64,000 nt of DNA. It comes from Pseudomonas sp. B21-028 (GTDB lineage: Bacteria > Pseudomonadota > Gammaproteobacteria > Pseudomonadales > Pseudomonadaceae). The notes below the pieces were generated by a model. That model was not told the origin of the DNA and did no database searches. It worked only from the letters and a program-made list of their open reading frames with translations. Both the position numbers and the translations under genes were made by a program. Numbering within the stretch: position 1 is the first letter of the stretch; the number at the start of each line of letters is the position of its first letter. Below are positions 25,623 to 54,175 of this stretch, one piece after another. The stretch is from positions 3,224,001 to 3,288,000 of the forward strand of contig NZ_CP087184.1 of the NCBI RefSeq assembly GCF_024749045.1, read 5' to 3'.

Positions 25623-25641
25623 GCCACCTGGGAGCCTGATC

Positions 25642-26577: not shown

Positions 26578-26585
26578 GCACCCCT

Positions 26586-26714: not shown

Positions 26715-26760
26715 AGGTACTATGTTGCTTGTTCGATTAACGCTAGCCAGGATGCCCGTC

Positions 26761-27420: not shown

Positions 27421-27437
27421 CCTGTGGCGATAAAGCC

Positions 27438-27567
27438 GTGGCGAGGGGATTTATCCCCGCTAGGCTGCGCAGCGGCCCCAAGAACAGACAACTCGGTGTG
27501 TCATGCTAATTGAGTCGTCAGTTTTGGGGCTGCTGCGCAGCCCAGCGGGGATAAATCCCCTCGCCAC
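27438..27567. repeat. REPIN with extended spacer
   Basis: This is the fourth copy of the GTGGCGAGGGGATTTATCC doublet, carrying the CTCGGTGTGTCATGCTAA spacer shared with the copy at 26586. It lies between the convergent tetR and sigma-54 regulator genes. Confidence 0.9.
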
Positions 27568-27597
27568 AGTTGATTTCAGTGGTGCCTTGAGCTTGCG

Positions 27598-29421
27598 CTA
27601 TTCACCGCCCGAACGTCGTGACAGCCGATAAGACAATTGAGCACGGGTCAGCCCAAGCCGGCGTGCGGCCTCGGAGACATTGCCTTTCACCTCGGCCAGG
27701 CAATGGTCGATCATCGTTTCTTCAATCTCCTGCAGCGACAGCCGACTCAAGTCCTTGCCACCGAACAGAGCCTGGATCGCGTCATTACCGGCCTGGGCCG
27801 GCGCGACGGGCGCAGGGGTGGACGGGTCATTCGGGGCGGCCGCCAGTTGACCGCGGGTGCCAATGGAAAACATCGGCTGGGCCAGGCGTTCGCCACTGGT
27901 GAACAGGTGGGCCAAGTCGATGGCACCGCCATCCGGCGCGCTGATCACGCCGCGCTCCACCAGGTTCTGCAGTTCGCGGATGTTGCCCGGAAAGTCATAG
28001 GCGAGCAGGGTGTCGGCCGTGCGCGGGGTGAAGCCGCTGATCTGCCGGCCATGATGGCGGGTGAAGCGGTGCAGGAAGTGGGTCATCAGCAGCGGGATGT
28101 CTTCCTTGCGCTCGCGCAGGGGCGGCAGGTGGATCGGGAAGACATTCAAGCGAAAGAACAGGTCTTCGCGAAACTCGCCGCGTTGGGCAGCGGCACGCAG
28201 GTCGACGTTGGTCGCGGCGACTACCCGCACATCGACCTTCAAGGTACGACTGCCGCCCACTCGCTCGATCTCACCTTCCTGCAAGGCCCGTAGCAGCTTG
28301 CCCTGGGCGACCAGGCTGAGGGTGGCAATTTCGTCGAGGAACAGGGTGCCGCCATCGGCGCGCTCGAAACGCCCGGCGCGGGATTGAGTGGCCCCGGTGA
28401 AGGCCCCGCGCTCAACGCCAAACAGCTCCGACTCCATCAAGTTCTCTGGAATGGCGGCGCAGTTGATCGCGACAAAAGGCGCATCGTGCCGCGGGCTGAT
28501 GCGGTGCAACATGCGTGCGAACATTTCTTTGCCGACGCCGGATTCACCGGTGAACAGCACCGTCGCCTGCGTCGGGGCGACTCGGCGAAGCATGTGGCAG
28601 GCAGCGTTGAAGGCCGAGGAAATACCGACCATGTCGCCGTCCTGGGTCGGTTGCGGATCGGCTTGCGGATTGGACGGCAATGCACCCTTGCCGCCAGGGC
28701 TGGGAGGTACCGTGCTACGCCCGCCGCTGCTGACGAAAGGTTCGGCCTTCAGGGCGGCCAGGTCCTCTTCCGCGTCGTCCCACTCTTCCGCGGGTTTACC
28801 GATCAGCCGGCAGATGCTGGAACCGGTGGAGCGGCATTCGACCTCACGGTAGAGGATCAATCGACCGACCATCGCCGAGGTGTATCCGGTGGCATAACCG
28901 GTCTGCATCCAGCACGCCGGCTCTGTGCCGATGCCGAAATGGGCGATGTGCTCGTCATCCTCGCTGGAGTGGTGCCAGAGGAATTCGCCGTAATAGGTGC
29001 CCAGGTTCATATCGAATTCGAAATGCACCGGCTCGACTTTAACCGCGCCTTCGATGGCGTGGATAATCGGGCCGGCGGCGAACAACGCCAGGACGTCGGC
29101 CTCGGGGAAGCGTTCCTTGATCAGTGCCGCATCCCGCGCACCGCAGTGGTAGCCGGTGCGCAGCAGGATGCCACGGGCACGGGCCAGACCCATGCTTTCA
29201 ATCATCTCCCGACGAAGCGCGCCGACGCCGCTGCTGTGCATCAACAGCATGCGTGCGCCGTTGAGCCAGATGCGCCCGTCGCCCGGGCTGAACATCAGGC
29301 ATTCGGTCAGATCCTGCAGGGTAGGGGCTGCGCCGGGAGGCAGCTGCTCGCTGGCGCCGCGCACGTGTTTCTTTCGGACTCCGCCGGAGAGTTCGGCCAG
29401 GGAGATCAGCTTGTCTGCCAT
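27598..29421 (-). CDS. Sigma-54 activator with phenol-sensing XylR_N/V4R input domain
   Basis: The 607-residue protein is organised as XylR_N plus V4R sensor (about 35-210), linker, AAA+ domain (about 262-500) and Fis-type helix-turn-helix (about 570-603). In the sensor, residues matching DmpR/MopR phenol and zinc ligands are intact: His121 (AGPIIH), Trp149 (FLWHHS), and Cys170, Glu193, Cys196 and Cys204. The AAA+ domain has Walker A GESGVGKE (292-299), the sigma-54 contact loop GAFTGA (339-344) and Walker B GGTLFLDE. It should bind an aromatic effector and activate the -24/-12 promoter at 29584 in front of calA. Confidence 0.9.
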
Positions 29422-29460
29422 CGGAAATCCTTAATATGAGTAATCATAATCCGCATAGTG

Positions 29461-29476
29461 CAGCATGAATTTGCTG
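29461..29476. promoter_or_regulatory. Inverted repeat, candidate upstream activator site
   Basis: CAGCA-TGAATT-TGCTG is a perfect 5-6-5 inverted repeat 108-123 bp upstream of the -24 element. That is the distance range used by enhancer-binding proteins. Assignment to the divergent sigma-54 activator is inference. Confidence 0.4.
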
Positions 29477-29583
29477 AAATCATCACTTTTTTCGGTCCCC
29501 GATTTTTCCCGCCTTACCTCGATATCCATCAAGAATGCTTGTATACCGCGAGCTTGAGCGGTCGCCCGATCATTGCCGAGAGA

Positions 29584-29599
29584 TGGCATATCGCTTGCT
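29584..29599 (+). promoter_or_regulatory. Sigma-54 (-24/-12) promoter of calA
   Basis: TGGCATATCGCTTGCT fits the TGGCAYR-N4-TTGCW consensus with correct GG to GC spacing. It lies about 100 bp before the calA start and reads away from the adjacent sigma-54 activator gene. Two copies of the palindrome AACTAGTT (29602-29609 and 29619-29626) follow near the expected start of transcription. Confidence 0.8.
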
Positions 29600-29695
29600 A
29601 CAACTAGTTACCGAGCTTAACTAGTTCGGCAATAACAACATGACTTGGCTGCCGTCCTCGGAAGGGGCAGTACAAGCACGAACCGGGAAATCCGT

Positions 29696-30463
29696 ATGAA
29701 GCTGACCAGCAAAAGGATTGTCGTGACCGGGGTCTCCTCGGGCATCGGCGCCGAGACCGCCCGAACCCTGCGGGCCCACGGAGCGATCGTGATCGGCATG
29801 GATCGCAACGAGCCCAACCTGAGCCTGGATGAATTCGTCCAGGCCGATCTCAGTCATCCCGAAGCCATCGATGCGGCCGTGCGCCGTTTGCCGGAACAGA
29901 TCGACGGCTTGTGCAACATCGCCGGGGTGCCAGGGACTGCCGATCCGCAGCTGGTGGCCCAGGTCAATTATCTCGGTCTTCGCCACCTCTGCGCGGCGGC
30001 GCTGCCACGGATCCGTGCCGGCGGCAGCATCGTCAACGTGGCCTCGATCCTCGGCGCGCAATGGCCGCAGCGTCTGGAGCTGCACAAGGCCCTGGCCCGC
30101 ACGGAAAGTTTCTTTCAGGGCCAAGCCTGGCTGGCCCAGCACCCGGTGCCCCAGGAGAGCTGCTACCAGTATTTCAAAGAAGCCCTGATCGTCTGGAACT
30201 ACGTGCAGGCCCAGCCCTGGTTCCTGCAGACCTCGGTGCGCATGAACAGCGTGGCGCCAGGCCCGGTGTTCACGCCCATCCTGGGGGATTTCGTCAGCAT
30301 GCTCGGTCAGGAGCGCGTCGAGGCCGATGCGCACCGCATGAAGCGTCCGGCCTATGCCGATGAGGTGGCGGCTGCCATCGCCTTCCTGAGTGCGGACGAA
30401 TCCCGCTGGATCAATGGCGTCAACCTGCCGGTCGATGGCGGCCTGGCGTCCACCTATATCTGA
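29696..30463 (+). CDS. calA: Coniferyl alcohol dehydrogenase
   Basis: The 255-residue SDR matches the Pseudomonas coniferyl alcohol dehydrogenase CalA in length and along its sequence. Features are TGVSSGIGAETA, VQADLSHPE, GLCNIAGVPGTADPQLVAQVNYLG, the catalytic YQYFK segment, VRMNSVAPGPVFTPIL, and the end WINGVNLPVDGGLASTYI. It oxidises coniferyl alcohol to coniferyl aldehyde, the substrate of CalB encoded 4 kb away. The ATG at 29696 is used; an in-frame extension to 29645 lies in the leader. A sigma-54 promoter precedes it. Confidence 0.9.
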   Translation: MKLTSKRIVVTGVSSGIGAETARTLRAHGAIVIGMDRNEPNLSLDEFVQADLSHPEAIDAAVRRLPEQIDGLCNIAGVPGTADPQLVAQVNYLGLRHLCAAALPRIRAGGSIVNVASILGAQWPQRLELHKALARTESFFQGQAWLAQHPVPQESCYQYFKEALIVWNYVQAQPWFLQTSVRMNSVAPGPVFTPILGDFVSMLGQERVEADAHRMKRPAYADEVAAAIAFLSADESRWINGVNLPVDGGLASTYI

Positions 30464-30557
30464 ACGAGAAACCACCGCCTGCGCAGTTGCGGGCCGCTCA
30501 TTGCCGTTCGTTTTCCAGACAACACGTTTCCAAACAACAAGAACAATGAGGAACACC

Positions 30558-32204
30558 ATGCACAACACTCGATGCTATCCGGGCTTCAAGCGTTCCACCC
30601 TGGCACTCTCGGTGTGCCTCGCCGGGCTGGCCTCCCAGACCCAGGCCGCACAGATCGATCTGGGCGACAGTGACTGGCGCCTGCGCTGGGACAACACCAT
30701 CAAGTACAGCCAGGCCTGGCGCCTGCAAGGTGCCGACGACCACTTGACCAACGCCTCCACGGCGGGTGGCTTGTACCCTTCGATTCAGGGGCAGGGCGAC
30801 AAGAACTTCAGCCGAGGCCTGGTCTCCAACCGGCTGGACCTGTTCAGTGAAATGGACTTGAGTCGGGAACACTACGGGCTGCGTCTCAGCGGGGCAGCCT
30901 GGTATGACGATATCTATAACAAGGACACCGACGACAGCGCGAACTCGCACTTCCTCAGCGACACCCGCGAACTGCACGGGCGCGACGCCGAACTGCTGGA
31001 TGCCTTCGTGTTTCTGCGCGGAGAGGTCGGTGACGCAAGCCAGGGCACCGTGCGCCTGGGCCGGCATAGCCTGATCTATGGCGAGAGCCTGTTCTACGGC
31101 AGCAACGGCATCGCCGCCGCCCAAGGGCCCACCGACGTGGTCAAGCTGCTCAGCGTACCTGGGACCCAGTTCAAGGAAATCCTGCGCCCGGTCAATCAAG
31201 TGTCCGGCCAATTGCAGATCAACCCGCAGCTGTCCGTCGGGGCCTATTACCAGTTCGAGTGGGAGCGTTCCAACGTACCCGGAGCGGGCAGCTACCTGAG
31301 CGATAACGATGGCATCGGCAAAGGGGCAGGGGATTGGACCGAGGTGTTCGGCAACACCACCGTGCATGCCTCCGACATCGAGGCCAAGAACTCGGGACAG
31401 GGCGGCCTGCAACTGCGCTTCAAGCCCGAAGGCACCGAACTGGAGCTGGGCTTCTATGCCGCCCAGTATCACGACAAGACCCCGAGCGCGCTGTACGCCT
31501 ACCTGGACGGTGCGGCGGCCGCCGCCACTGGACTGCCGATCCTGAGCTCCTATCGCCAGGTCTACGCCGAAGACATCAAGACCGTTGGCGCCAGCTTCTC
31601 CACGGCTTATGGCCCGTTCAACTTCGCCGGCGAGACTTCGGTGCGCTGGAATGCGCCCCTGGTGAGCAACCTGCAAGTGGTGACACCGGGAACCGCGGCG
31701 GACAACAGCGGCGACGCGCTCTACGCCAAGGGCAAGACCGCCCACGTCAACCTGTCGACGATCTACCTGCTGTCGCCCGGCGCGCTGTGGGACGGTGGCT
31801 CGGTGCTTGCCGAACTGGCGTGGAACCGCACCCTCAGCGTGACTGACAACCCGGGGGCATTGGACCCCAACACCACCCGGGATGCCACCGCGCTGCGGGT
31901 ACTGGCCGAACCGGCTTACTTCCAGGTGGCCGACGGTCTCGACCTGAGCGTGCCGGTGGGCTTTGGCGTGGGTCTCGACGGTCGCTCCTCGGCCGTCAGC
32001 AAGGGCGGTTTCGGCAACTCACACGCCGGTGACTGGAGCGTAGGGCTCAAGGCCACTTACTTGCAGCGCTGGGACTTCGGCATCAACTACGTGAACTTCT
32101 TCGGCAAGGCTGCGGCAGGGCTGAACGAGGCGGGCAACTTCAGCTATGCGCAATCGCTGGCCGACCGTGACTTCGTCTCCATGTACGTGAAAACCACATT
32201 CTAA
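30558..32204 (+). CDS. DUF1302 outer membrane beta-barrel protein
   Basis: The 548-residue product has a signal peptide (TLALSVCLAGLASQTQA) and a DUF1302 body. It opens with IDLGDSDWRLRWDNTIKYS and has many alternating amphipathic strands, SRGLVSNRLDLFSEMDLSREHYGLRLSGAAWYD, LGRHSLIYGESLFYGSNGIAAAQGPTDVVKLLSVPGTQFKEILRPVNQVSGQL, and a C-terminal VSMYVKTTF ending in Phe as outer membrane barrels do. The family is uncharacterised but almost always pairs with DUF1329. The ATG at 30558 has GAGGA five bases upstream. It starts 94 bp after calA on the same strand. Confidence 0.88.
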   Translation: MHNTRCYPGFKRSTLALSVCLAGLASQTQAAQIDLGDSDWRLRWDNTIKYSQAWRLQGADDHLTNASTAGGLYPSIQGQGDKNFSRGLVSNRLDLFSEMDLSREHYGLRLSGAAWYDDIYNKDTDDSANSHFLSDTRELHGRDAELLDAFVFLRGEVGDASQGTVRLGRHSLIYGESLFYGSNGIAAAQGPTDVVKLLSVPGTQFKEILRPVNQVSGQLQINPQLSVGAYYQFEWERSNVPGAGSYLSDNDGIGKGAGDWTEVFGNTTVHASDIEAKNSGQGGLQLRFKPEGTELELGFYAAQYHDKTPSALYAYLDGAAAAATGLPILSSYRQVYAEDIKTVGASFSTAYGPFNFAGETSVRWNAPLVSNLQVVTPGTAADNSGDALYAKGKTAHVNLSTIYLLSPGALWDGGSVLAELAWNRTLSVTDNPGALDPNTTRDATALRVLAEPAYFQVADGLDLSVPVGFGVGLDGRSSAVSKGGFGNSHAGDWSVGLKATYLQRWDFGINYVNFFGKAAAGLNEAGNFSYAQSLADRDFVSMYVKTTF

Positions 32205-32222
32205 TAAGAGGTTTCATCCCCT

Positions 32223-33584
32223 ATGCAAAGCCAATTTTCCTTGCGTATGTCGGCCCTGGCCATTGCCTTGCTGAGTGCCGGCGTGGTGCAGGCGGCGGTT
32301 TCCCCTGATCAGGCCGCCCGGCTCAATACCGACCTCACCCCCATGGGCGCCGAGCGCGCGGGCAACAAGGACGGCAGCATTCCGGCGTGGACCGGGGGCT
32401 ATACGACAGTGCCGGCGGGCTATAAGAACGGCGACAAGCGTGCCGATCCATTTGCCGCCGACAAGCCGCTGTACTCGGTCAGCGCAGCCAACATGGCGCA
32501 ATACGCCGATCAGTTGTCCGACGGCGCCAAAGCCTTGCTGCAGAAATACCCGGGTTATCGTCTGGACGTCTATCCGACTCACCGCAGCGCCGCCGCGCCG
32601 CAGTGGGTGTATGACAACACCTTGAAGAACGCGACCCGCGCCACCCTCGAAGTGGACTCGGAAAAAGTCAGCGGTGCCTATGGCGGCATTCCGTTCCCGT
32701 TGCCACAGAACGGGACCGAGGTGCTGTGGAACTACCGCCTGTCCTGGCAGGGGGGCGACACCTTCTATTCGCCTTTCGATACCTGGCTGATGACCGCTGG
32801 CGGCAAGAAGATCCAGGCCACCCGGGCGCGTTTCTGGTACCAGAGCCCTTACTACTTCAAGGAAGGCAGTCTCGAAACCTTCGCGGGCAAGTTCCTGATC
32901 GGCAAACTGGCCACGGAGCTGCCATCGTCCAAGGCCGGCGAGGGCCTGATGACCCACTGGGACATGGACCCTGGCAAGCGCGCCGCCTGGCAGTACCTGG
33001 TCGGTCAGCGTCGGGTACGGCGAGCACCGAACATTGCCTATGACACGCCGGACTTCGTCACCTCGGGCGTGGGTTTCTTCGATGAGGCCTTCATGATTTT
33101 CGGTCCGACCGACCGTCACGACCTCAAGCTGGTGGGCAAGAAAGAGTTGCTGGTGCCCTACAACAACAACCGCGCGGCCGCGGCGAAGAGCGACGACCTG
33201 GTCAAGCCGAACTTCCTCAACCCGGATCTGGTGCGCTGGGAGAAACACCGGGTCTGGGTGGTGAATGCCACGCTCAAGGAAGGTAAGCGTCATGTGGTGC
33301 CAAAACGCACCTATTACGTCGACGAGGACTCCTGGCAGGTGCTGCTGGTGGACGGTTACGACGCCCAGGGCAAATTGGGTCGCACCAACTACTCGCTGAC
33401 CCTGCTGGCCCCGGAAATGCCGGCGCTCACCGCGCAGATGTCGTGGGGCAGCTACAACCTGGAGACCGGCGCCTACTTCCTGAACTCCTCGGCCAACGAC
33501 CTGGATGTCCAGTACCAGAGCTATCCGCGTCCGTCATCTTCGTTCTTCACCCCCGACGCCATGGCTAACGACAGTTCGCGTTGA
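32223..33584 (+). CDS. DUF1329 periplasmic protein (LolA/LolB-like fold)
   Basis: The 453-residue protein has a signal peptide ending in AGVVQAAV (about 25) and the DUF1329 signature: LNTDLTPMGAERAGNKDGSIPAWTGG, LDVYPTHRSAAAPQWVYDNTLKNA, a beta-rich body with WQYLVGQRRVRRAPNIAYDTPDF, and WEKHRVWVVNATLKEGKRHVVPKRTYYVDEDSWQVLLVDGYDAQG. The family has been grouped with the LolA/LolB lipoprotein-carrier fold, which suggests carriage of a hydrophobic ligand across the periplasm. It lies 18 bp after the DUF1302 gene, its usual partner. Confidence 0.88.
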   Translation: MQSQFSLRMSALAIALLSAGVVQAAVSPDQAARLNTDLTPMGAERAGNKDGSIPAWTGGYTTVPAGYKNGDKRADPFAADKPLYSVSAANMAQYADQLSDGAKALLQKYPGYRLDVYPTHRSAAAPQWVYDNTLKNATRATLEVDSEKVSGAYGGIPFPLPQNGTEVLWNYRLSWQGGDTFYSPFDTWLMTAGGKKIQATRARFWYQSPYYFKEGSLETFAGKFLIGKLATELPSSKAGEGLMTHWDMDPGKRAAWQYLVGQRRVRRAPNIAYDTPDFVTSGVGFFDEAFMIFGPTDRHDLKLVGKKELLVPYNNNRAAAAKSDDLVKPNFLNPDLVRWEKHRVWVVNATLKEGKRHVVPKRTYYVDEDSWQVLLVDGYDAQGKLGRTNYSLTLLAPEMPALTAQMSWGSYNLETGAYFLNSSANDLDVQYQSYPRPSSSFFTPDAMANDSSR

Positions 33585-33595
33585 GCCGTTGCCCT

Positions 33596-33624
33596 ACGCG
33601 CCGGAGCCCCTGGCATCGGCGCGT
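33596..33624 (+). other. Intercistronic RNA hairpin
   Basis: ACGCGCCG (33596-33603) and CGGCGCGT (33617-33624) form a perfect 8 bp stem, 11 bp after the DUF1329 stop and 38 bp before the next start. There is no U-run. It may protect or process the mRNA, lowering downstream expression relative to the first genes. Confidence 0.5.
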
Positions 33625-33662
33625 TGCGTTTGGATAACTCTTGAGTGGTGGTTGGAGCGGAT

Positions 33663-34742
33663 ATGATCGGTAACTTTTCACTCGGGCGGGCGTTGTCGGT
33701 GATCCTGACGCTGACGGTCTTGCTGATGTCGGGCTGGACGACGGCCAGCCCAAGAATTGCCTCGCTCGATCAGGCGGCCATGCAGAGCGCCAAGGCTACG
33801 CATGCCGCGTTGCTGGCGGTGACTCGCGCAGGCGAACGGCTGGTGGCGGTCGGCGAGCGCGGCATCGTCCTGCTCTCCGATGACTCCGGCAAAAGCTGGC
33901 GCCAGGCACGGGTGCCGGTCAGTGTCAGCCTGACGGCGGTGCAATTCGTCGATGACGAGCAGGGCTGGGCCGTCGGTCATATGGGCGTGGTGCTGCACAG
34001 CACCGACGGCGGCGAAACCTGGGTCAAGCAACTCGATGGCGTCGCGGCGGCGCAGTTGGCGCTGGCTGCCGCGCAACAGGGCGGCGACGCCAAGCCTGTG
34101 GAAGACGCCGAGCGATTGGTCGCGGATGGGCCGGACAAGCCGTTTCTCGATCTGTACTTCAGCGACCGTCGCAACGGCTATGTGGTCGGCGCCTATGGCC
34201 TGATCCTGCATACCGTCGACGGTGGCGGGACCTGGAAACCGTGGATGCAGCAGGTGGACAACCCCGACGGGCTCAACCTGTACGGCATTCGTGCGGCGGG
34301 GGGAGAACTGTTCATCGTCGGCGAGCGGGGTCTGTTATTGCGCTCCAAAGACAACGGCAGCAGCTTCCAGGCGCTCGAATCACCCTATGACGGCAGCTTC
34401 TTCGGTCTGCAAGGCAGTGCCAGCGGCGAACTGATCGCCTTCGGCCTGCGCGGCAATGCCTTCTGGTCGGGTGACCAGGGGGCTAGTTGGCGGCGTATCG
34501 AAACCGGCCTGGAAGTGGCCTTGTCCGCCGGCACTCAACTCAAGGATGGGGCGCTGGTCCTGGCCAGCCAAGCCGGAGACCTGTTGCTCAGTTCCGGTCG
34601 CGGAAGCCGCTTGCGGCATCTTTCCGGCCCGGCCGGCACCTCCATCGCCGGTCTGGTGGCCGCCCCGGATGGCAGCTTGATCTGCGTCGGCCTGGGCGGG
34701 CTGACCCGCCTCGATCAAGCCCTTGTCTCGGCGCAACGCTGA
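33663..34742 (+). CDS. YCF48-like beta-propeller protein
   Basis: The 359-residue secreted protein has an N-terminal hydrophobic signal (LSVILTLTVLLMSGWTTASP) and repeated blades of the YCF48/BNR type: GERGIVLLSDDSGKSWRQARVP, VGHMGVVLHSTDGGETWVKQ, VGAYGLILHTVDGGGTWKPW, and VGERGLLLRSKDNGSSFQAL. In plants and cyanobacteria YCF48 assists photosystem II assembly; in proteobacteria such proteins are found beside RND/MMPL transporters with unknown job. GGAG lies five bases before the ATG at 33663. It probably sits in the periplasm as part of the same system as its neighbours. Confidence 0.88.
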   Translation: MIGNFSLGRALSVILTLTVLLMSGWTTASPRIASLDQAAMQSAKATHAALLAVTRAGERLVAVGERGIVLLSDDSGKSWRQARVPVSVSLTAVQFVDDEQGWAVGHMGVVLHSTDGGETWVKQLDGVAAAQLALAAAQQGGDAKPVEDAERLVADGPDKPFLDLYFSDRRNGYVVGAYGLILHTVDGGGTWKPWMQQVDNPDGLNLYGIRAAGGELFIVGERGLLLRSKDNGSSFQALESPYDGSFFGLQGSASGELIAFGLRGNAFWSGDQGASWRRIETGLEVALSAGTQLKDGALVLASQAGDLLLSSGRGSRLRHLSGPAGTSIAGLVAAPDGSLICVGLGGLTRLDQALVSAQR

Positions 34743-34796
34743 ACCCTTTGCCAGAGCGCTATTGCACAGCCCATGCGGCCGTATTTGGAGTCCGAT

Positions 34797-37232
34797 GTGA
34801 ACGACCATAATTCCTCCCTCGAACAGCAAGTGGTGATGGCCCGCCTGGAGGATTTCGATCCGCGTTCCGGCAACCTCGGCGAACGGGCGATCTTCAACCA
34901 CCGCCCCTGGGTCATGCTGCTCTGCCTGCTGGTGACCCTGGTGCTGGGTTACCAGGCCAGCAAGATCGGTCTCAATGCCAGTTTCGAGAAGACCATCCCG
35001 ACGTCGCATCCCTACGTGGCCAACTTCCTTGAACAGCGCAGTGAACTGAGTGGCCTCGGCAACTCGATCCGCGTCGCCGTGGCGGTCAAGGAGGGCACTA
35101 TTTTCGACAAGGATTACCTCGATACCCTCGCCAAGCTCAACGACGAGATCTACCTGCTGCCCGGTGTCGACAAACCCTACATGAAGTCCTTGTGGACGCC
35201 GACCACCCGCTGGACCGCCGTGACCGAGGACGGCCTGGATGGCGGCACGGTGATTCCGGACAGCTACGACGGCTCGCCGGCCAGCCTGGATGAGGTGCGG
35301 ACCAATGTCGCCCGTTCTGGAGAAATCGGCCAATTGGTGGCCGGCAATTTCCAGTCCAGCGTGATCTTCGTGCCGCTGCTGGAAATCAATCCGGCGACCG
35401 GCAAGGCACTGGACGCCGGTGAGTTTTCACGGCAGCTGGAAGCCTTACGTGACAAGTACCAGAACGAGCGCATCCAGATCCACATCACCGGCTTCACCAA
35501 GATCATCGGTGACCTGATCGCCGGATTGGGGCAGGTCATGCTGTTCTTCGCGGTCGCCGTGCTGGTGACCGTGGCAGTGCTCTATTGGTACACCCGCTGC
35601 GCGCGCAGCACGGCATTGGTGGTGCTCTGTTCCCTGGTGGCGGTGCTCTGGCAGATCGGCCTGCTCGCCACCCTTGGCTACGATCTGGACCCGTACTCGG
35701 CGCTGGTTCCGTTCCTGGTGTTCGCCATCGGCATGAGCCACGGCGCGCAGAAAATGAACGGCATCATGCAGGACATCGGCCGCGGCACGCACCGGGTCGT
35801 CGCGGCGCGCTATACCTTCCGCCGTCTGTTCGCCGCCGGCATGACCGCGCTGCTCTGCGATGCGGTGGGTTTCGCCGTGCTGATCGTGATCAAGATCCAG
35901 GTGATCCAGGACCTGGCGATCACCGCCAGCATTGGCGTGGCGGTGCTGATCTTTACCAACCTGATCCTGCTGCCGATCCTGCTCAGCTACATCGGCGTCG
36001 GTGCCAAGGCCGCAGCCCGCAGCTTGCGCGCGGAAACCGCCGAGTTGAGCGCGAACACCAAGCATCCGCTGTGGAGTTTTCTCGACCTGTTTACCCGGCG
36101 TTCCTGGGCCATTGCCGCTTGCCTGGTCGGCTTGGCCCTGGCCGCCGGCGGGTTTGCCGTCAGCCTGCACCTGAAGATCGGCGATCTGGATCCCGGCGCC
36201 CCGGAGCTGCGTCCAGATTCGCGCTACAACCGTGATGCGGCGTTCATGACGCAAAACTACGCGGCCAGTTCGGACATCTTCGTGGTCATGGTGAAAACCC
36301 CGGAAGACCAATGCACCCGCTATCCGACCCTGGCCGCGGTCGATTCGCTGGCCTGGCAACTGGAGCAGTTGCCAGGCGTGGAATCCACCAACTCCATGGC
36401 CGCCATGAGTAAGGTCGCCGCCGCCGGCTACAACGAGGGCAACTTCAAGTGGTACGAGTTGATCCCCAACGACGGTGCCCTCGGCGCCGTGCAGACCCGC
36501 GCACCGCGTGAACTGTTCAACCAGGGCTGCTCGTTGCTTTCGCTCTACGTGTACCTGGCCGACCACAAGGCCGACACCCTGGAGCGGGTGGTGCAGACCA
36601 GTGAAGCGTTCATCGCCCAACAGAAACTGCCAGAGGTGAAGTTCATGCTGGCCGCCGGCAGCGCCGGGATCGAGGCGGCGACCAACATCGTGGTGAAGAA
36701 GGCCATGCACGAGATGCTGTTCTGGGTCTACGGTGCGGTGATCCTGCTGTGCTGGGTGACCTTTCGCTCCTGGCGCGCGGTATTGGCGGCGGTGCTGCCG
36801 CTGGTACTCACCTCGATTCTGTGCGAGGCGCTGATGGTCGGCCTCGGCATGGGCGTCAAGGTCGCCACCTTGCCGGTGATCGCCCTCGGCGTGGGCATCG
36901 GCGTCGATTACGCGCTCTACGTGCTGAGTATCATCCTGGCGCACATGCGTGCCGGTGCCTCGCTGTCCGAAGCGTATTACCGCGCATTGCTGTTCACCGG
37001 CAAGGTGGTGCTGCTGACCGGCATCACCCTGGCCATCGCGGTGGCGACCTGGGCCTGGTCACCGATCAAGTTCCAGGCCGACATGGGCATCCTGCTGGCG
37101 TTCATGTTCCTGGTGAACATGCTCGGCGCCTTGATCCTGTTGCCGGCGCTGGCTTACTTCCTGTTGCCGCAGAGGTTGTTCGCAAAAAAGCCTGAGGCCT
37201 GCGGCGTGATGCAGGCGGTCGAAGGGGGCTGA
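34797..37232 (+). CDS. RND/MMPL family transporter
   Basis: The 811-residue inner membrane protein has the duplicated RND architecture: TM1 at about 38-55 ([17 protein letters not shown]), a large periplasmic loop, a five-helix block ([35 protein letters not shown] through [13 protein letters not shown]), then a second copy with loop and block ([63 protein letters not shown]). Conserved GIGVDYAL suits proton coupling in this family. It matches the hydrophobe/lipid exporter type rather than drug tripartite pumps, since no membrane fusion protein is present. The GTG at 34797 follows GGAG by six bases. Confidence 0.88.
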
Positions 37233-37296
37233 GGGGAGACTCAACGACCGTATTCGCGCGTGCTATCGATCTGCTTCAGGCCTAAGGATAAGAACA

Positions 37297-39255
37297 ATGC
37301 TGAAGACAACTGCCCGGCTGCTTGCCAACTGTTCGGTGGGGCAAAAACTGCTGCTCGGATTCGGTCTGGTGTCCTTGCTCGCGGTGGCCGCCATCGCCCA
37401 GGGCTTGTATGCCACCGTCAGCCTTCTTGAACACGGCCAGCAGGTCGGCGCCATGGTGGAGATCAATCGCCTGACGCTGCAGATGCGCAATGCGGAGAAA
37501 GCCTACGCACTTGATCCCGAGCCTCTCGCAATGCGTCAGGTTCGAGAGCTGATCCAGGCGCTGGGCGCTCAACTCCAGAAGGTGAAGACGGGCGCATCGG
37601 GCGAGGATGTGCCGTTACTGACCGCCATGCAGCAATCCGTCGATGGTTATGAAGGCCAGTTCGCACACTTCATCGAACATCAGCGTCTGGCGGTGGACGC
37701 GTTGAGCCATATGCAGGAGCAGGCGGAACAGGCCCGCCTGCAGTTCGAGGCTGTCGAACTGGATATGTACGACCAGGTCCGCGGCGTATTGAACAGCGGC
37801 CAGGCCCTGGAAGGTGATCCGCTGAGCCTCGCGGAACAGGCCTCGGCGTTGCAGCGAAAACTGCTGGTCACCCGCAACCGAGAATTTCTCTACGTAGAGG
37901 AGGGCGCAGCGCAGACGCTCCAAGGCTGGACCGAGTCAGTGGACGAAATGGGTGACGCGCTGGAGCTGCTCCAGGGCCGTGTGGATGAGAACTCCGAAGA
38001 GTCCCTGGCGGCGGCTCGGGCGGCGCTGGTCGAATATCGCAAGGCATTCCAGCGCTACCGGGACAGTCGGGCGCTGAGCAAGCAGACGGCCGGGCAGATG
38101 GACACCCAGGCCCAGGCCGTGCTGACCCAGGTCGAACAAGCCGCCGCCGATCGACAATTGCAGATGGGCGAGCGGGGCCGTTCGATGATGCGCCTGCAAG
38201 CAGTGGGGGCAGTGATTATCGTGGTCCTGGCGTTGTTGGCGTCGCTGGTTATCCGGCATCTGATCGTCGCGCCTCTGCGCGAGGCGTTGCAGACCGCCCG
38301 GCGCATTGCCCAGGGCGATCTGAGTGAGGCGGTCGAAGGCATGACGGTGCGTCGGGACGAATTGGGTCAGTTGATGGTGGCAGTTGGAGAGATGACGACC
38401 AATCTGCGTCGGCTGGTGGCGCGTATCGGGCTGAGTGTCGAGGGGTTGGGGCAAACGACCCGGACCCTGAGCACAGCCAGCGCCCAAAGCAGCGGGGCGG
38501 CGCAACGCCAAAGGGCCGAGACAGAACACGCGGCCACCGCCATGCAGCAAATGAGTAGCACGGTTGCACAAGTGGCGCAGAACGCCGAACAAGCCTCCCA
38601 CGCCGCCGGCGAGGCCGACCATCAGGCACGTAACGGCGAGCAGGTCGTGCAGATGGCGAGCCAGCAGATCCATCGTCTGGCAGCGGAAATGACCCTTTCC
38701 GAACAGGCCATCGAGTCCTTGCAGCGGCAGGTCGAAACCATCGGCAGGGTTGCCGACGTGATTGCTTCAATTGCCGAGCAAACCAACCTGCTTGCACTCA
38801 ATGCAGCCATCGAAGCCGCTCGGGCGGGAGAGCAGGGCCGTGGATTTGCCGTGGTCGCCGATGAAGTGCGGGCACTGGCACGGCGAACCCAGGCCTCGAC
38901 CAGCGAGATCGAGACGCTGATCGTCGGGCTGCAACGTCTTTCGCAGCAGAGCGTCGGGCAGATCCAGGGTTGCGGCCGCCTGATGATCGACACCGTGTCG
39001 CTGGCCGATCAAGTGAGCTCAGCCTTGGGCGGCATTACCGGAGCGGTGTCGCTGATCGAGCAGATGAACCAGCAGAACGCAGCCAGCGCCGAGCAGCAGA
39101 GCATCGTGGCCGAAGAGGTCAGCCGCAATGTGATGCAGGTGCGCAATGAGGCCGAACATTGTGTCGGGGTGAATCAGCAGGTGGTCCTGGCCTGTGGGGA
39201 TCTGGCTGGCCTGGAGCATGAGTTGCGAGAGGCCGTTGCTCAGTTCCGGACCTGA
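37297..39255 (+). CDS. Methyl-accepting chemotaxis protein with HBM-type sensor
   Basis: The 652-residue receptor has TM1 at about 18-40, a helical periplasmic domain of about 260 residues (41-300) that fits the helical bimodular type seen in organic acid receptors such as McpS, TM2 at 302-322, HAMP (about 323-378), and a cytoplasmic signalling hairpin with the conserved tip [36 protein letters not shown]. The ATG at 37297 has AAGGA upstream. Its place after the aromatic/transport cluster hints at chemotaxis to a related compound, which is unproven. Confidence 0.9.
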
Positions 39256-39295
39256 ATCCAGGGTACTCAGGCTCCTGTCATCTCTTCCGCAGGCT

Positions 39296-39538
39296 TCAAG
39301 GCTGTTGCTTGGCGTCGGTCGAGACAACGCTGTCCAAGGTATCCGCACCGGGCACCTTGCTCGGGCCCCACGACCGCTCGCTGCGACATTTGAACTTCAC
39401 GCCTTTGCGGGGCGTTATGTCCCTGACTTTCGCCATGCACAGCTCTTTAGTGACATAGGTCGGCTCAGTTTTGCGCACATCCACGCAGCCCTCGTCGCCC
39501 CTGCAGAGAGTCATAACCATAACGTATACGGTCATCAT
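39296..39538 (-). CDS. Small cysteine-containing hypothetical protein
   Basis: The 80-residue product begins MMTVYVMVMTLCRGDEGCVDV. It has further cysteines in KELCMAKV and KFKCRSE, and a polar tail. It reads like small conserved Pseudomonas proteins whose cysteines might pair, but I cannot name a family. The start at 39538 has GGGAG about ten bases upstream; a longer frame to 39568 has none. It is convergent with the chemoreceptor gene. Confidence 0.55.
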   Translation of the reverse strand: MMTVYVMVMTLCRGDEGCVDVRKTEPTYVTKELCMAKVRDITPRKGVKFKCRSERSWGPSKVPGADTLDSVVSTDAKQQP

Positions 39539-39720
39539 CCTGATGTTGCTCCCATAGAAGCAATGCAATTGATGCGTCCTGCGTTAAGCCCGGGAGGGCT
39601 CAAGCGAGTAGCACTGACAAGCGGATGATGATCCTTCCTTCGAGCCTCCAGCAATGGCGCGCCAATGCCTTCCGTCGGGAAAACGTCACTTCCTCAAATA
39701 TTGATGATTTCAGAGAAAAT

Positions 39721-39743
39721 AACGCCATTATGTTGGCGTTTTT
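39721..39743. terminator. Bidirectional terminator-like hairpin
   Basis: AACGCCA (39721-39727) pairs with TGGCGTT (39734-39740) around TTATGT. The plus strand continues with TTT (five T in a row including the stem end), and the minus strand gives ATTTTC after the stem. This sits in the 370 bp gap 39539-39907, in which nothing else was recognised. Confidence 0.6.
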
Positions 39744-39907
39744 CCAGTGGCAAACGGTTAAATGCTATGGAGAATCTACAGGCCATGCCTGGCAATCCCT
39801 CGGCCGGATAGCGATATGTAATCCGAACGAAAGTCCAGGCAGTTCAGCAAGACGGGGGCAGGGTAGAAGGATGGAAAACAACAGTTGCCGCGAGCAGCTT
39901 CCCAGCG

Positions 39908-40311
39908 CTAAGGCGTTTCAAAGTTCTCGTAGTCCAGGGAGATCGAATCGCTCCTTGGATAGCTGACATACACCATCTCGCCATAGTTACTGGCGACCAA
40001 GACGTAGGGCCACTTGCCATTTGCCTTTCGTAGTTGCTCATACAAGGGAAGAAAGAAATCTTTGGTCTGACCCTGAGGGTCGTACGGGACCTCACCCTGA
40101 AAAATTGGATAACGTCCACCATTACACAGCTGAACCCGCTCCAGCTTGATGCCGTTTTTCTCCAGTACGGTTCGAGCTGGATGCTGCCAGGTGCCAAGGT
40201 CGACATCCTGGCAGTCGCTGGTCTTTTGGGTATAGAGCTCAGTGTGAGGGCTGGATACGCCATGGCCTGGCTGCTCAGGAAGAATAAAGCCAAGGGTAAG
40301 AGACATTGCAT
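39908..40311 (-). pseudogene. Frameshifted gene for a small secreted protein
   Basis: The minus strand from the ATG at 40311 encodes a convincing signal peptide (MQCLLPLALFFLSSQAMA) but then loses sense. The mature-looking domain is in the neighbouring frame, from about 40250 to 39908: HTELYTQKTSDCQDVDLGTW, VERVQLCNGGRYPIF-type segment, PYDPQGQTKDFFLPLYEQLRKANGKWPYVLVASNYGEMVYVSYPRSD. Joining the two needs a one-base shift near 40250. I therefore read it as one gene broken by a frameshift, or a sequencing error. The intact product would be about 130 residues, exported, function unknown. Confidence 0.65.
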
Positions 40312-40324
40312 GATGACGGTCCGA

Positions 40325-40388
40325 GTTCAAAGGTTCAAAGGTTCAAAGGTTCAAAGGTTCAAAGGTTCAAAGGTTCAAAGGTTCAAAG
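40325..40388. repeat. Octanucleotide tandem repeat, (GTTCAAAG)x8
   Basis: Eight uninterrupted copies of GTTCAAAG lie 14 bp upstream of the minus-strand start at 40311. Each copy contributes a TGA on the minus strand, so all three frames are closed and the tract is not coding. Such arrays change copy number by slippage and can alter promoter spacing. Confidence 0.95.
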
Positions 40389-40558
40389 GCGGATAAGGCT
40401 TGCACGGACTTTCTCGCCGAACAAGAGCTGGGTCAGTAGCGTGTGAGCAGAATCTCAGATGCAGCGGCATCGATGTAGATAGCGTAGCGTCCTGAGTCAG
40501 AATCCAGAGAGTGCTGGGGCGATGGAGGTTCATACTGGGTGGGAGTTGGTAATATCTT

Positions 40559-40586
40559 GTTACGCATAATGTATATTATGTTAAAC
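40559..40586. other. Chromosome dimer resolution site dif
   Basis: The XerC arm GTTACGCATAA, the spacer TGTATA and the XerD arm TTATGTTAAAC form a 28 bp site that differs from the E. coli dif at three positions only, with the spacer and inner arms identical. XerC/XerD recombine here under FtsK control to resolve chromosome dimers. On the plus strand to the left, GGGNAGGG octamers occur at 2671, 7455, 16927, 21556, 21625, 26014, 29319, 30789, 31324 and 39856. To the right, the complement CCCTTCCC occurs at 58134. This polarity is the one expected around dif. Confidence 0.88.
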
Positions 40587-40590
40587 GATA

Positions 40591-40627
40591 TGTGTAGAAG
40601 CGTTTATTGGGCAGCACATTCTACACA
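40591..40627. repeat. Inverted repeat beside dif
   Basis: TGTGTAGAA (40591-40599) and TTCTACACA (40619-40627) are a perfect 9 bp inverted repeat with a 19-base spacer, starting five bases right of dif and running into the recombinase remnant. It may be an element end or a hairpin. Confidence 0.6.
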
Positions 40628-40799
40628 CCCGCCCTCAAGCAACTTTGCCCGGTCGAGGCCTACATCAACTGGATCACCGTGTCAGGTATCGTGGACGGGC
40701 CTGTATTCCGCAAGCTCGATCGCTGGGGGAATCTTTCCGACAGAGGCTTCAGGGCCAGCAGCTTGATTCCCCTGCTGCGCCGGATTCAAACATCAAAAG
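40607..40799 (+). pseudogene. Fragment of a tyrosine site-specific recombinase
   Basis: The frame reads CPVEAYINWITVSGIVDGPVFRKLDRWGNLSDRGFRASSLIPLLRRI. This matches the middle of the catalytic domain of phage-type integrases, the segment between the first catalytic Arg and the HxxR box. The N-terminal domain, both Arg boxes and the Tyr nucleophile are missing, so it is a remnant. It lies 20 bp from dif, which suggests an old insertion by an element that used or neighboured the Xer site. Confidence 0.65.
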
Positions 40800-40811
40800 G
40801 TAATACCGCGC

Positions 40812-41282
40812 TCAGCCCAGCACCGGGATCACTCGCGAGGGCTTAACCGATTTGAACGAAAAACTTGAATAAATCTCTTTGACCGCCGGCAAGGTTTGCA
40901 GCACCTCTCGCGCAAACTCGCCGAAAGACTCCAGGTCTTTGGCCACCACTTCCAGTAGAAAATCGTAGCGTCCGGAAACGTTGTGACAGGCGACGATCTC
41001 CGGGATTTCCAATAGGCGCTGTTCGAAGGATCGAGCCATTTCCTGACTGTGGGACTCCATCATCACGCTAACAAATGCGGTGACGCCGTAGCCGAGTGCC
41101 TTGGGCGAAAGAATCGCCTGGTAGCCGGTAATCACTGCGTTCTCTTCAAGAATTTTCACCCGTCGCCAACACGGCGAAGTGGTCAGCGCCACATGTTCGG
41201 CCAGTTCGGCGATGGTCAGCCGGGCGTTGCCTTGCAGGGCCGCGAGTAAGGCCTTGTCGGTACGATCCAGCTCGCCGGGCAT
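40812..41282 (-). CDS. mdeR: Lrp/AsnC family regulator of methionine gamma-lyase
   Basis: The 156-residue protein has an N-terminal helix-turn-helix (LDRTDKALLAALQGNARLTIAELAEHVALTTSPCWRRVKILEENAVI, about 5-51) and the RAM effector domain (GYGVTAFVSVMMESHSQEM to VKEIYSSFSFKSVK). It is divergent from mdeA exactly as MdeR is in Pseudomonas putida, where it activates mdeA in response to methionine. Three CCAAATT-like half-sites lie between the two genes. The start is at 41282. Confidence 0.85.
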   Translation of the reverse strand: MPGELDRTDKALLAALQGNARLTIAELAEHVALTTSPCWRRVKILEENAVITGYQAILSPKALGYGVTAFVSVMMESHSQEMARSFEQRLLEIPEIVACHNVSGRYDFLLEVVAKDLESFGEFAREVLQTLPAVKEIYSSFSFKSVKPSRVIPVLG

Positions 41283-49981: not shown

Positions 49982-51358
49982 ATGCGTACCGCAACCCAAG
50001 TACTGAAAACCCGGAGCCTTCACAGCAATAAGGCCCGCGCGCAACCATGGCCACGATCCAGGCTCTGGTTATCCATGTTGCTAATCGGCACCTGCGGCAC
50101 GGCCCTGGCCGCCGAGCCATCGGCGCAAGGCTTTATGGACGGTTCAACCCTGGATGTGCTGAGCCGAAATTTCTTCCTGCAGAATGACTACCGGTCCCCC
50201 TCCCCGGCGAACAAAAACTATAAACAAGAGTGGGCCCAGGGCTTCATCGCCTCATTTGCCTCCGGCTTTACCCCCGGCACCGTCGGTTTCGGTGTCGATG
50301 CCCATGGTTTTCTCGGTGTGAAACTGGATGGAGGCAAGGGGCATTCCGGAACGGGTTTGCTGCCGCTGGATTCGGATGGTCGCAGTGAGAGCGACTTCTC
50401 CAGTGCCGGTGGCGCGTTGAAGCTGCGCGCGTCCCGAACCACCTTGGCCTACGGTGAGATGACCGTGGAAACCCCGGTGTTCGACACCGCCGACAAACGC
50501 CTGCAACCGGAATACGCCACGGGGTTTCTGCTCGACAGCCGGGAGGTCGACGACGTGCATTTACAGGCCGGACGCTTCACCGCTTTCAAGAATCAGGAAG
50601 CCTCGACCCGCAAAGGGGATTTCACCGGTTATGGGGTGAGCACCGAGACCGGCAGTATCACTTTCCTCGGCGCCCAATTATTCGAGGATCAGCCGTTGGG
50701 CGGTGCTCTGTACGCGTCCGAGCTGAGTGACACCTGGCGTCAGTACTACGCCAACCTGCATCTGAAGCAATCCGGGTTCTTTCTGGACAGCAACGTTTAT
50801 CACACTCAGGCTTACGGCAACGCCGTGGCCGGCGCGATTGATAACACCGCTTATAGCTTGTCTGGCAAATATACTGTCGGCGCTCAGGGATTCACCCTGG
50901 CTTATCAGAAGATCCATGGCGACACGCCCTTCGACTTTGTCGGCGGTGACTCGATCTACCTCGCCAATTCCATCAAATACGCTGACTTCAACGGTGCCGG
51001 CGAACACTCGTGGCAGGCCCGCTACGACCTCGATTTGGGGGCTTTCGGTGTCCCGGGGTTGAAATTCATGACCCGCTACGTTATCGGTCGCGGCATCGAC
51101 GGTACCCACGCCCCCCAAGGTGGGGCGTACAACCCATTTGCTTCGGACGCCGGCCAGTTCGTCCCGCAACAAGGGGATGGCGGACGCCATTGGGAGCGGG
51201 ATATCGATCTGCACTACATCGTGCAATCGGGGCCGGCCAAGGATTTGTCCGTGCAGGTGTCCCAAGTGTCACATCGGGCCAATAGCGCTCAGGGCGGGGA
51301 TGACATTGACCGGATTTACATCGTGATTGAGTACCCCCTCAAGTTGGGACGTTTTTAA
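49982..51358 (+). CDS. OprD family porin, BenF-like
   Basis: The 458-residue protein has a long basic signal region ending in GTCGTALAAEPS (about 45) and the OprD body: TLDVLSRNFFLQNDYR, QEWAQGFIASFASGFTPGTVGFGVDAHGFLGVKLDGG, RASRTTLAYGEMTVETPVFDTADKRLQPE, YQKIHGDTPFDFVGGDSIYLANSIKYADFNGAGEHSWQARYDLDLGAFGVPGLKFMTRY, and a terminal GRF aromatic end. Being within 1 kb of benDCBA suggests benzoate uptake (BenF type). It is on the opposite strand and convergent with them, so not in their operon. The ribosome binding site at 49982 is weak. Confidence 0.88.
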   Translation: MRTATQVLKTRSLHSNKARAQPWPRSRLWLSMLLIGTCGTALAAEPSAQGFMDGSTLDVLSRNFFLQNDYRSPSPANKNYKQEWAQGFIASFASGFTPGTVGFGVDAHGFLGVKLDGGKGHSGTGLLPLDSDGRSESDFSSAGGALKLRASRTTLAYGEMTVETPVFDTADKRLQPEYATGFLLDSREVDDVHLQAGRFTAFKNQEASTRKGDFTGYGVSTETGSITFLGAQLFEDQPLGGALYASELSDTWRQYYANLHLKQSGFFLDSNVYHTQAYGNAVAGAIDNTAYSLSGKYTVGAQGFTLAYQKIHGDTPFDFVGGDSIYLANSIKYADFNGAGEHSWQARYDLDLGAFGVPGLKFMTRYVIGRGIDGTHAPQGGAYNPFASDAGQFVPQQGDGGRHWERDIDLHYIVQSGPAKDLSVQVSQVSHRANSAQGGDDIDRIYIVIEYPLKLGRF

Positions 51359-51449
51359 CCGGGTCGCTTCACGGTGGCCTTGAATATCCTCTACCGCCGA
51401 GGAGGCATCGCTACCCACAGCTCTATGACTTCGGGATCGGCCTGAACCT

Positions 51450-51593
51450 TAGCCTCTGTACGAAAAGCCTTGAGACTCGTTCATGCTGCGTTGAAAACAG
51501 CCTCGGAATGCTCATGTACTCCAGTACACTGCGCTTCCTCGGCTGTTTTCGCCTTGCCTGACCTTCGTCTCAAGACTTTTCGTACAGAGCCTA
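51450..51593. mobile_element. Palindromic MITE-like element, 144 bp
   Basis: The left half from TAGCCTCTGTACGAAAAG and the reverse complement of the right half from TAGGCTCTGTACGAAAAG match at 25 of the first 27 positions. They match again across GAAAACAGCC in the interior, so the whole unit can fold into one long hairpin. It encodes nothing. The structure fits a non-autonomous miniature transposable element. A solo end lies at 48410. Confidence 0.7.
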
Positions 51594-51962
51594 GGGAAAA
51601 CCATTCGTGGTATTTCCGTCGTCCTTCATATTTTGTATGTATAGCCCAATTTGTGCCCAATCCTCACTGAGCTCGAAATCAAAAACGTCTAGCGAGGATA
51701 ATTTCCGGACCTCATCAAAATCGACATGAGCCAATAACAACCCAGCGCCAGTATTGGCAAAAGTTGCAGCATCAGCAACATGAGAGGCGACTATGAAGCC
51801 TACAGATATAGCCTCCACCCATAAAAAAGGAGTTTTATAAGCTGGTTGTTTTCCGAGAGTTCTATGGGCGACCAAAGAATCCAGGTAATCATTCATTGTG
51901 GGTTGGGTATGTTTAAACTTTCTCTTTTTCAACTTAACAAAATAGATATGGTAATTCGCCAT
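51591..51962 (-). CDS. Hypothetical protein whose stop codon lies in the MITE end
   Basis: The 123-residue product begins MANYHIYFVKLKKRKFKHTQ and contains SVGFIVASHVADAATFANTGAGLLLAHVDFDEVRKLSSLDVFDFELSEDWAQI. It is AT-rich and not recognised. GGAGG lies nine bases upstream of the ATG, so it is a real gene or recent relic. Its TAG stop is formed by the first bases of the MITE-like element, so the original C-terminus may have been longer. Confidence 0.6.
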   Translation of the reverse strand: MANYHIYFVKLKKRKFKHTQPTMNDYLDSLVAHRTLGKQPAYKTPFLWVEAISVGFIVASHVADAATFANTGAGLLLAHVDFDEVRKLSSLDVFDFELSEDWAQIGLYIQNMKDDGNTTNGFP

Positions 51963-52302
51963 CGTCGCCTTCCTCCATTCTGGCTACATGCGCCCACTCT
52001 GTCCCCGACAATTCGCCGCCTCAAAAAACACCTCAAGCATCTCGTAAACCCCACTTGGACGATTCACGCGAACCGACGAGGCAATCGGCTGGCACGCAAG
52101 CCTATCGGCTCGGTGTCCAGCCGGATCGCATCGATGCGGATCACTGGGCAAACGCCCAGTAAATCAGGCGCAGCTATCATCGTACACCCTCCCGGGTTCG
52201 TCCATGACCCACGACCTGGACAAACACATGCAGGTCAGCGCATAACCTGACCGACGCAGGCGCCGTTCACCATGCTTACCAGCGCGGGCGCCATTTACCG
52301 AA
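51963..52302. other. Gap downstream of benD
   Basis: About 340 bp. A short plus-strand frame at 52204 (MTHDLDKHMQVSA) has no support. No terminator for the ben operon and no further ben gene (benK, benE) was seen. Confidence 0.4.
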
Positions 52303-53064: not shown

Positions 53065-53096
53065 GACAACCTCGGACGGAATGTTCCCGTAACGAT

Positions 53097-54110: not shown

Positions 54111-54175
54111 GTTGCACCTCGCTCACAGCGTCGAGCCGATATTCGAATGCGTCGATAGCGCTCGCCGCAGCCTGA

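What the first reader, a model, noticed from the sequence alone, without database searches (positions are those of the whole stretch)
40559..40586. Near-perfect dif site places the window at the replication terminus
The 28 bp site has the canonical TGTATA spacer and differs from E. coli dif at three outer positions. Ten GGGNAGGG octamers on the plus strand to the left and one CCCTTCCC to the right point towards it, as FtsK-orienting sequences should. This also explains the mix of remnants and orphans around it.
Basis: partly seen in the sequence, partly recalled or inferred. Interest (0 to 1): 0.72.

Follow-up and report, generated by a model that had tools for sequence, protein, structure and literature searches.

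The report
Chromosome dimer-resolution site of a Pseudomonas

Summary
The finding is right: 40559-40586 is the chromosome's dif site. It has three outer mismatches to E. coli dif; its 23-nt core occurs once in the 6.49 Mb genome with up to 3 mismatches. In the surrounding 400 kb, cumulative GC skew peaks 38 bp from the dif centre and KOPS invert: 38+/3- left, 1+/20- right. XerC, XerD and an FtsK gamma domain are encoded, dnaA lies opposite, no Tus was found. All 36 sampled genomes of the genus have the core. As a thing it is ordinary. Two by-products are less ordinary. In 88 Pseudomonas species the 300 bp on each side of dif carry about five times the G excess seen at 4-9.9 kb, plus an A excess, towards dif; tests of intergenic position, gene direction, KOPS and shared ancestry did not explain it. 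And in E. coli an integrase-trio island of GInt-like layout sits at dif's XerD edge, leaving dif whole; its end motif recurs beside dif in 16 of 96 Pseudomonas.

The parts
40559..40586 (+). dif site, 28 bp: XerC arm 40559-40569 (GTTACGCATAA), spacer 40570-40575 (TGTATA), XerD arm 40576-40586 (TTATGTTAAAC)
   Evidence: 3 mismatches to E. coli dif, 0 expected; single in genome; conserved in genus. The division into arms is established knowledge of dif, also described in PMC10132070 (passages).
1087..39863 (+). 14 KOPS octamers GGGNAGGG pointing right, towards dif; the nearest is 39856-39863
   Evidence: polarity over 400 kb
50198..58141 (-). 2 KOPS octamers pointing left, towards dif: 50198-50205 and 58134-58141
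   Evidence: polarity over 400 kb
40259..40886 (.). the 300 bp on each side of dif with G-rich strands running towards dif (the window's share of the genus-wide halo; weak on the right)
   Evidence: this window: GC skew towards dif L 0.385 / R 0.094 at 0-100 bp, 0.224 / 0.056 at 100-300 bp; genus:
40607..40840 (+). broken piece of a tyrosine recombinase beginning about 20 bp from the XerD end of dif (matches residues 185-262 of a 323-aa Pseudomonas luteola plasmid integrase)
   Evidence: tblastn 56% over 78 aa; DNA match at about 40621-40787 to 17 plasmid records

Best explanation
It is the chromosomal dif site of this Pseudomonas. When homologous recombination joins the two sister chromosomes into a dimer, FtsK at the division septum pumps DNA in the direction read from KOPS until it reaches dif. 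The FtsK gamma domain then activates XerD, and XerC with XerD exchange strands between the two dif copies, giving two monomers. Shown here: site, uniqueness, KOPS polarity, skew switch, presence of xerC, xerD and the ftsK gamma domain, conservation across the genus. Inferred from established dif/Xer biology: that recombination happens at this copy, and every mechanistic step.
For: Match to E. coli dif with 3 outer mismatches, none expected. Only one in 6,493,931 bp. Cumulative GC-skew maximum of the 400 kb terminus at +38 bp of the dif centre; KOPS 38+/3- left and 1+/20- right, best switch between -717 and +9625 bp; in 20 further 20-kb stretches on the arms KOPS are 20+/4- on the left arm (10 stretches) and 1+/35- on the right arm (10 stretches), GC skew positive in 10 of 10 left and negative in 9 of 10 right stretches. 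XerD and XerC pass their NCBIfam cut-offs (390.4 over 329.6; 354.3 over 335.15); FtsK gamma domain 95 bits over 30.6. dnaA domain at 1243, dif at 50.3% of the contig. 22-nt core with up to 3 mismatches in 50 of 57 genomes, own included, among them all 36 of the genus; 370 of 398 genus genomes, own included, at the stricter 18-nt, 1-mismatch pattern. Near dif, KOPS of 36 genomes (about 10 kb a side; four have one short side, three of them a longer other side) are 74 towards / 6 away on the left and 78 towards / 3 away on the right. P. aeruginosa PAO1 dif has the same core (Table 1 of PMC2731167, passage).
Against: None found for identity. No recombination was measured. The number of KOPS in the window is not above chance. 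The two 20-kb stretches at the contig ends, next to the origin, do not show the arm pattern clearly: bases 1-20,000 have 0+/4- KOPS and skew 0.002, the last 20 kb 1+/2- and 0.008. NCBIfam's full-length FtsK model is not reached (727 of 1566 bits); the locus held only part of the gene. 7 of 57 relatives, all outside the genus, gave no match.
Confidence: 0.97

Rival explanations
1. It is a dif-like attachment site carried by an integrated Xer-exploiting element (IMEX, filamentous phage, pdif module), and the real dif lies elsewhere.
For: An integrase scrap lies about 20 bp away; dif-like sites do occur on plasmids, e.g. Pseudomonas antarctica pP27494_1 and Acinetobacter plasmids (PMC10132070, passages).
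Against: No second site in the genome; skew and KOPS switch exactly here. At the P. antarctica plasmid copy they do not: 1 KOPS on each strand in 40 kb and no consistent skew step beyond 300 bp.
Confidence: 0.02
2. A chance AT-rich palindrome-like sequence.
For: None.
Against: 0 of 100 shuffles give a match; the core is kept in all 36 sampled genus genomes.
Confidence: 0.005

Closest known systems
dif of Pseudomonas aeruginosa PAO1 (PMC2731167, Table 1, passage seen)
   Same: Same 23-nt core, single copy, near the cumulative GC-skew maximum.
   Different: Three outer bases differ (2, 4 and 28). The skew maximum is 38 bp away here (within the 400 kb examined) against 14,962 bp listed there.
dif/XerCD-FtsK-KOPS system of Escherichia coli
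   Same: XerC arm, TGTATA spacer, XerD arm; xerC, xerD and ftsK gamma present; KOPS GGGNAGGG point at dif.
   Different: Bases 2, 4 and 28 differ; no Tus-family protein found in this genome, so no Tus/Ter fork trap of the E. coli kind.
GInt islands (ginABCD; PMC5385486, passages plus sections 5 and 13)
   Same: For the E. coli neighbour island only: two integrase-family proteins, a large hypothetical and a small one at one end, bounded by 12-nt imperfect repeats.
   Different: Its target is dif; the word dif has 0 occurrences in that paper (listing). Membership was judged by layout, not by homology to named Gin proteins. The window itself carries no such island.
IS1202-family dif hunters (PMC10132070, passages)
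   Same: Mobile DNA that homes to dif.
   Different: Those sit 5 bp from the XerC arm; the island traced here sits at the XerD edge.

Membership tests
Chromosomal dif site of the XerCD type | 28-bp site of two arms and a 6-bp spacer close to known dif | tested here: met
   3 outer mismatches
Chromosomal dif site of the XerCD type | single copy on the chromosome | tested here: met
   1 match with up to 3 mismatches over the 23-nt core
Chromosomal dif site of the XerCD type | at the cumulative GC-skew extremum | tested here: met
   38 bp from the dif centre within 400 kb; the rest of the genome was sampled, not scanned
Chromosomal dif site of the XerCD type | KOPS on both arms point to it | tested here: met
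Chromosomal dif site of the XerCD type | XerC, XerD and FtsK gamma encoded in the genome | tested here: met
Chromosomal dif site of the XerCD type | XerCD recombination at the site, activated by FtsK | not testable with these tools
   needs an experiment
Xer-exploiting mobile element (IMEX) attachment site | a second dif-like copy bounding an insertion | tested here: not met
GInt (for the E. coli island beside dif, not for the window) | operon of three tyrosine recombinases plus a small protein at one end | tested here: inconclusive
   two proteins match Phage_integrase; the 788-aa third matches no Pfam or NCBIfam family (the paper says GinC is often annotated as hypothetical); no direct comparison with Gin proteins; in ET915 the first gene is annotated as a pseudogene with an internal stop
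GInt (for the E. coli island beside dif, not for the window) | attL and attR imperfect repeats of at least 10-11 nt | tested here: met
   12-nt repeat with 1 mismatch in strain ET915 (one strain examined)

The most novel reading that the evidence does not exclude
In Pseudomonas the composition switch at dif is not just the edge of replication-strand bias. The 300 bp on each side form a polar purine halo: strands running 5' to 3' into dif are rich in G and in A, while the arms further out are G-rich only, with slightly more T than A. That points to a process acting at dif itself (FtsK arrest, XerCD synapsis, or repair of breaks made at division) that selects or mutates sequence near dif. A 300 bp footprint centred on dif would make the open question of why GC skew follows dif rather than the replication terminus directly testable.
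Probability: 0.4. Interest if true: 0.6.

Novelty: new member of a known kind. Interest (0 to 1): 0.3.

Why it matters
The site itself matters only as a landmark: it fixes the terminus and the orientation of this genome. The comparative by-products matter more. If the halo is real biology, it separates dif's own footprint from replication bias, a point under debate because GC skew follows dif more closely than the predicted terminus (PMC6199493 and PMC3317982, passages). If dif is a regular landing site of integrase-trio islands that leave dif whole, it is a safe harbour for cargo in E. coli, on large plasmids and in Pseudomonas.

Tried and rejected
Extended palindrome: in several species the sequence left of dif looked like an inverted copy of the XerC arm. 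Over 16 axes, complementarity was mostly no better than with flanks shuffled among species; z was 3.4 at an axis lying in the arm itself and about 2 at two others (-6 and -14). I dropped it.

Insertion-sequence ends: recurrent TGTCA... sequences 25-35 bp right of dif looked like Tn5053- or IS-type ends (noted). In 20 species I listed the right-hand ORFs with their first 45 residues and saw no transposase by eye, but searched no family library with them. I dropped the idea; what those sequences are is open.

Local blastn of flanks for shared starts within 120 bp of dif found few pairs (85 right, 84 left among 96 genomes), so most flanks are independent.

Strand-biased circularizing elements (PMC10214605): compared from passages only; the whole word dif does not occur there. 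The GInt layout fits the E. coli island better.

Gamma-mobile-trio: the P. antarctica plasmid site has gmtY and gmtX nearby; the paper search listed six papers, none with the term in title or abstract, and I opened none. No GmtY, GmtX or VPA1269 hit (tblastn, E up to 1e-3) lay in the 96 Pseudomonas dif flanks.

Halo outside Pseudomonas: 30 genomes outside the genus give pooled GC skew 0.023 [-0.009, 0.052], i.e. no GC halo, 13 of 30 with both sides towards dif and 6 with both away; but AT skew is 0.044 [0.015, 0.071]. E. coli K-12 shows the GC part on the left only (0.24 and 0.20; right -0.11 and -0.01); E. coli S1 shows it on both sides, its right side being the island. The GC part may therefore be specific to Pseudomonas and the AT part is not. 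A small extra set, 7 named Pseudomonas genomes, gave 6 of 7 with both sides towards dif, pooled 0.122; of the nine loci L112 was too short and one was a duplicate; some of the 7 may be species already counted.

Full report
Observation. The 28-mer at 40559-40586 matches E. coli dif with three outer mismatches and nothing like it is expected by chance. The window is bases 3,224,001-3,288,000 of a single 6,493,931-base contig, and the 23-nt core has one match in that genome with up to three mismatches. KOPS in the window: 14 on +, all left of the site, and 2 on -, both right. The count is not above chance; the polarity is complete.

Is it the terminus? In 400 kb centred on dif the cumulative GC skew peaks 38 bp from the dif centre; KOPS are 38 plus and 3 minus to the left, 1 plus and 20 minus to the right; the best single switch lies between -717 and +9625 bp. 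Of 20 more 20-kb stretches spread over the arms, GC skew is positive in 10 of 10 on the left arm and negative in 9 of 10 on the right; two further stretches at the contig ends, beside the origin, have skew near zero and KOPS mostly on the minus strand (0+/4- and 1+/2-). The DnaA C-terminal domain lies at 1243-1449, so dif, at 50.3% of the contig, is opposite the usual neighbour of the origin. No Tus-family protein was found. XerD and XerC exceed their NCBIfam cut-offs, and one FtsK gamma domain is present. This meets every defining feature of a chromosomal dif that I could test by sequence.

Which organism? The genus is Pseudomonas by context: the identical 28-mer occurs in 9 stretches of named genomes, all Pseudomonas, and the 17 plasmid records matching the neighbouring integrase scrap are 16 Pseudomonas and 1 Stutzerimonas. 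Contig length links G144 to P. corrugata DSM 7228 (284,006 bases); it shares the sequence at the right end of and beyond the integrase scrap (94%, query bases 189-274).

Neighbourhood. Directly right of dif a broken tyrosine recombinase begins at about 40607, followed by an AsnC-type regulator and a Cys/Met-metabolism PLP enzyme. Eight window proteins and the scrap were compared with the dif flanks of 35 other genomes of the genus (about 10 kb a side, four of them with one short side). Apart from chemotaxis-receptor matches at 36-43% (those under 35% were not printed), one MMPL match (70%, G015) and one weak DHDPS match (24%, G005), none recurs there. So dif stays while its neighbours turn over.

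Comparative result 1, the halo. I held dif flanks of 96 Pseudomonas species, 88 of them with 9.9 kb on both sides. Pooled, the cumulative skew peaks 28 bp from the dif centre (bootstrap 28-40); looking only within 9.9 kb, 30 of 88 single species have their peak within 100 bp and 46 of 88 within 1 kb. Towards dif, GC skew is 0.135, 0.140 and 0.079 at 14-100, 100-200 and 200-300 bp, 0.027 at 300-500 bp and 0.023 at 4-9.9 kb; AT skew is +0.03 to +0.05 within 300 bp, against -0.009 at 4-9.9 kb. Both sides agree in sign in 63 of 88 species, both disagree in 1 of 88; at eight control centres the figures are 10-29 and 10-23. The idea arose from the first 32 full-flank species; in the 56 fetched afterwards it repeats: GC 0.108 [0.092, 0.126], AT 0.043, 39 of 56 with both sides agreeing, peak at +32 bp.

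What does not explain it. Intergenic DNA at 4-9.9 kb has 0.029. Convergent (23), divergent (17) and tandem (43) dif contexts give 0.130, 0.131 and 0.092, and 5 cases where a called ORF covers dif 0.114; convergent gaps elsewhere (174) give 0.032, divergent gaps (201) 0.015, AT-rich intergenic 28-mers (209) 0.023. Leaving out the inner 60 bp gives 0.115. Taking one flank per homology cluster, 102 of 123 are positive and 19 negative. KOPS themselves are scarce within 300 bp (3 towards, 0 away) although 381 of 401 within 9.8 kb point to dif. Against a general rule: 30 genomes outside the genus show no GC halo, but do show the AT part; K-12 has the GC part on one side. Gene calls were my own simple ones. 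The three paper searches nearest to this question listed no such local feature in titles or abstract starts; that is all I can say about print. PMC2731167 gives a median distance of 7,277 bp between dif and the skew peak (passage), PMC6199493 a mean of 13 kb (passage).

Comparative result 2, islands at the XerD edge. In E. coli S1, identity to K-12 runs through dif (one base of the XerC arm differs) and stops 2 bases past its XerD end, where an island begins with integrases of 446 and 521 aa and proteins of 788 and 144 aa. In E. coli ET915 the island spans about 25.4 kb: K-12 sequence is matched up to 2 bases past dif and again from base 19 of dif, so a 12-base stretch (the last 10 of dif and 2 more) occurs at both ends with one mismatch; dif is whole at one end and only most of the XerD arm is left at the other. 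At least 80% of the first 3.07 kb is present in 79 of 5426 E. coli genomes; 162 have some part. For dif plus 117 bases, of 60 rows listed at even steps from 165 records, 35 match from within the first 5 bases of dif, 34 of them on records over 4.5 Mb and 1 on a 200-kb record; most others begin at bases 16-22, i.e. with little more than the XerD arm. In plasmids 175 records carry related ends, and 22 of the 40 rows listed match from the first 2 bases. The layout and the imperfect repeats fit GInts (PMC5385486, sections 5 and 13), a paper in which the word dif has 0 occurrences. A last paper search for islands at dif listed none of this in titles or abstract starts.

Distant relatives of the trio (22-41% identity) lie right of dif in Pseudomonas G002 (all three), in G028 (parts of two) and left of it in G373 (two), among 96 genomes. 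A GTTCAT motif with 19 bases between it and the dif end, as in E. coli S1 and ET915, occurs in 16 of 96 Pseudomonas; the next commonest offset has 8, and the rate elsewhere is 22 of 5184 windows. These look like ends left by such islands, though the 16 are not independent. The window has GTTTAT at +15, too weak to call. The halo does not depend on these ends: right flanks without them give 0.115 (71 species), with them 0.112 (17 species of a list of 22 that I chose by eye).

Judgement. Its own interest is low. I raise the score a little for the two by-products, which came from its surroundings and relatives, not from the 28 bases.

Noticed in passing
L236:10003-15904 (E. coli S1) and L259:1598-27081 (E. 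coli ET915): An integrase-trio island of GInt-like layout is integrated at the XerD edge of dif; dif is kept whole at one end, a 12-base repeat with one mismatch marks the other (ET915). Some part of its start is present in 162 of 5426 E. coli genomes.
   Followed up: partly
right flanks of dif in 16 of 96 Pseudomonas genomes (e.g. G002, G014, G287): GTTCAT at exactly +19 from the dif end, the same register as the E. coli island's end, suggests relics of such islands beside dif.
   Followed up: partly
window 40325-40389: A perfect tandem array of GTTCAAAG, 8.1 copies, lies about 170 bp left of dif and about 14 bp upstream of the start of the minus-strand ORF 39844-40311, which may or may not be a gene. 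Copy number could vary by slippage.
   Followed up: no
L235:20001-20032 (P. antarctica plasmid pP27494_1); G217:C2, G469:C102, G660:C2: These second dif-like sites share the spacer TGTATC instead of the genome's own; second sites seen in G031, G042, G474, G520, G597 and G604 do not. A changed spacer could keep them from recombining with chromosomal dif; whether the G contigs are plasmids is not known.
   Followed up: no
dif of 11 of 96 Pseudomonas (G002, G010, G015, G018 and others): A variant XerC arm beginning GTTACGTG (in place of ...CGCA) recurs.
   Followed up: no
about -40 to -4 left of dif in Pseudomonas: Scattered conserved bases (TNAAAT at about -40 to -35, ATA[CT] at about -7 to -4) just outside dif on the XerC side, meaning unknown (whose zero is the second base of dif).
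   Followed up: partly
L235: The P. antarctica plasmid with a dif-like site also has gamma-mobile-trio genes and an annotated replication terminus site-binding protein within 11 kb.
   Followed up: no
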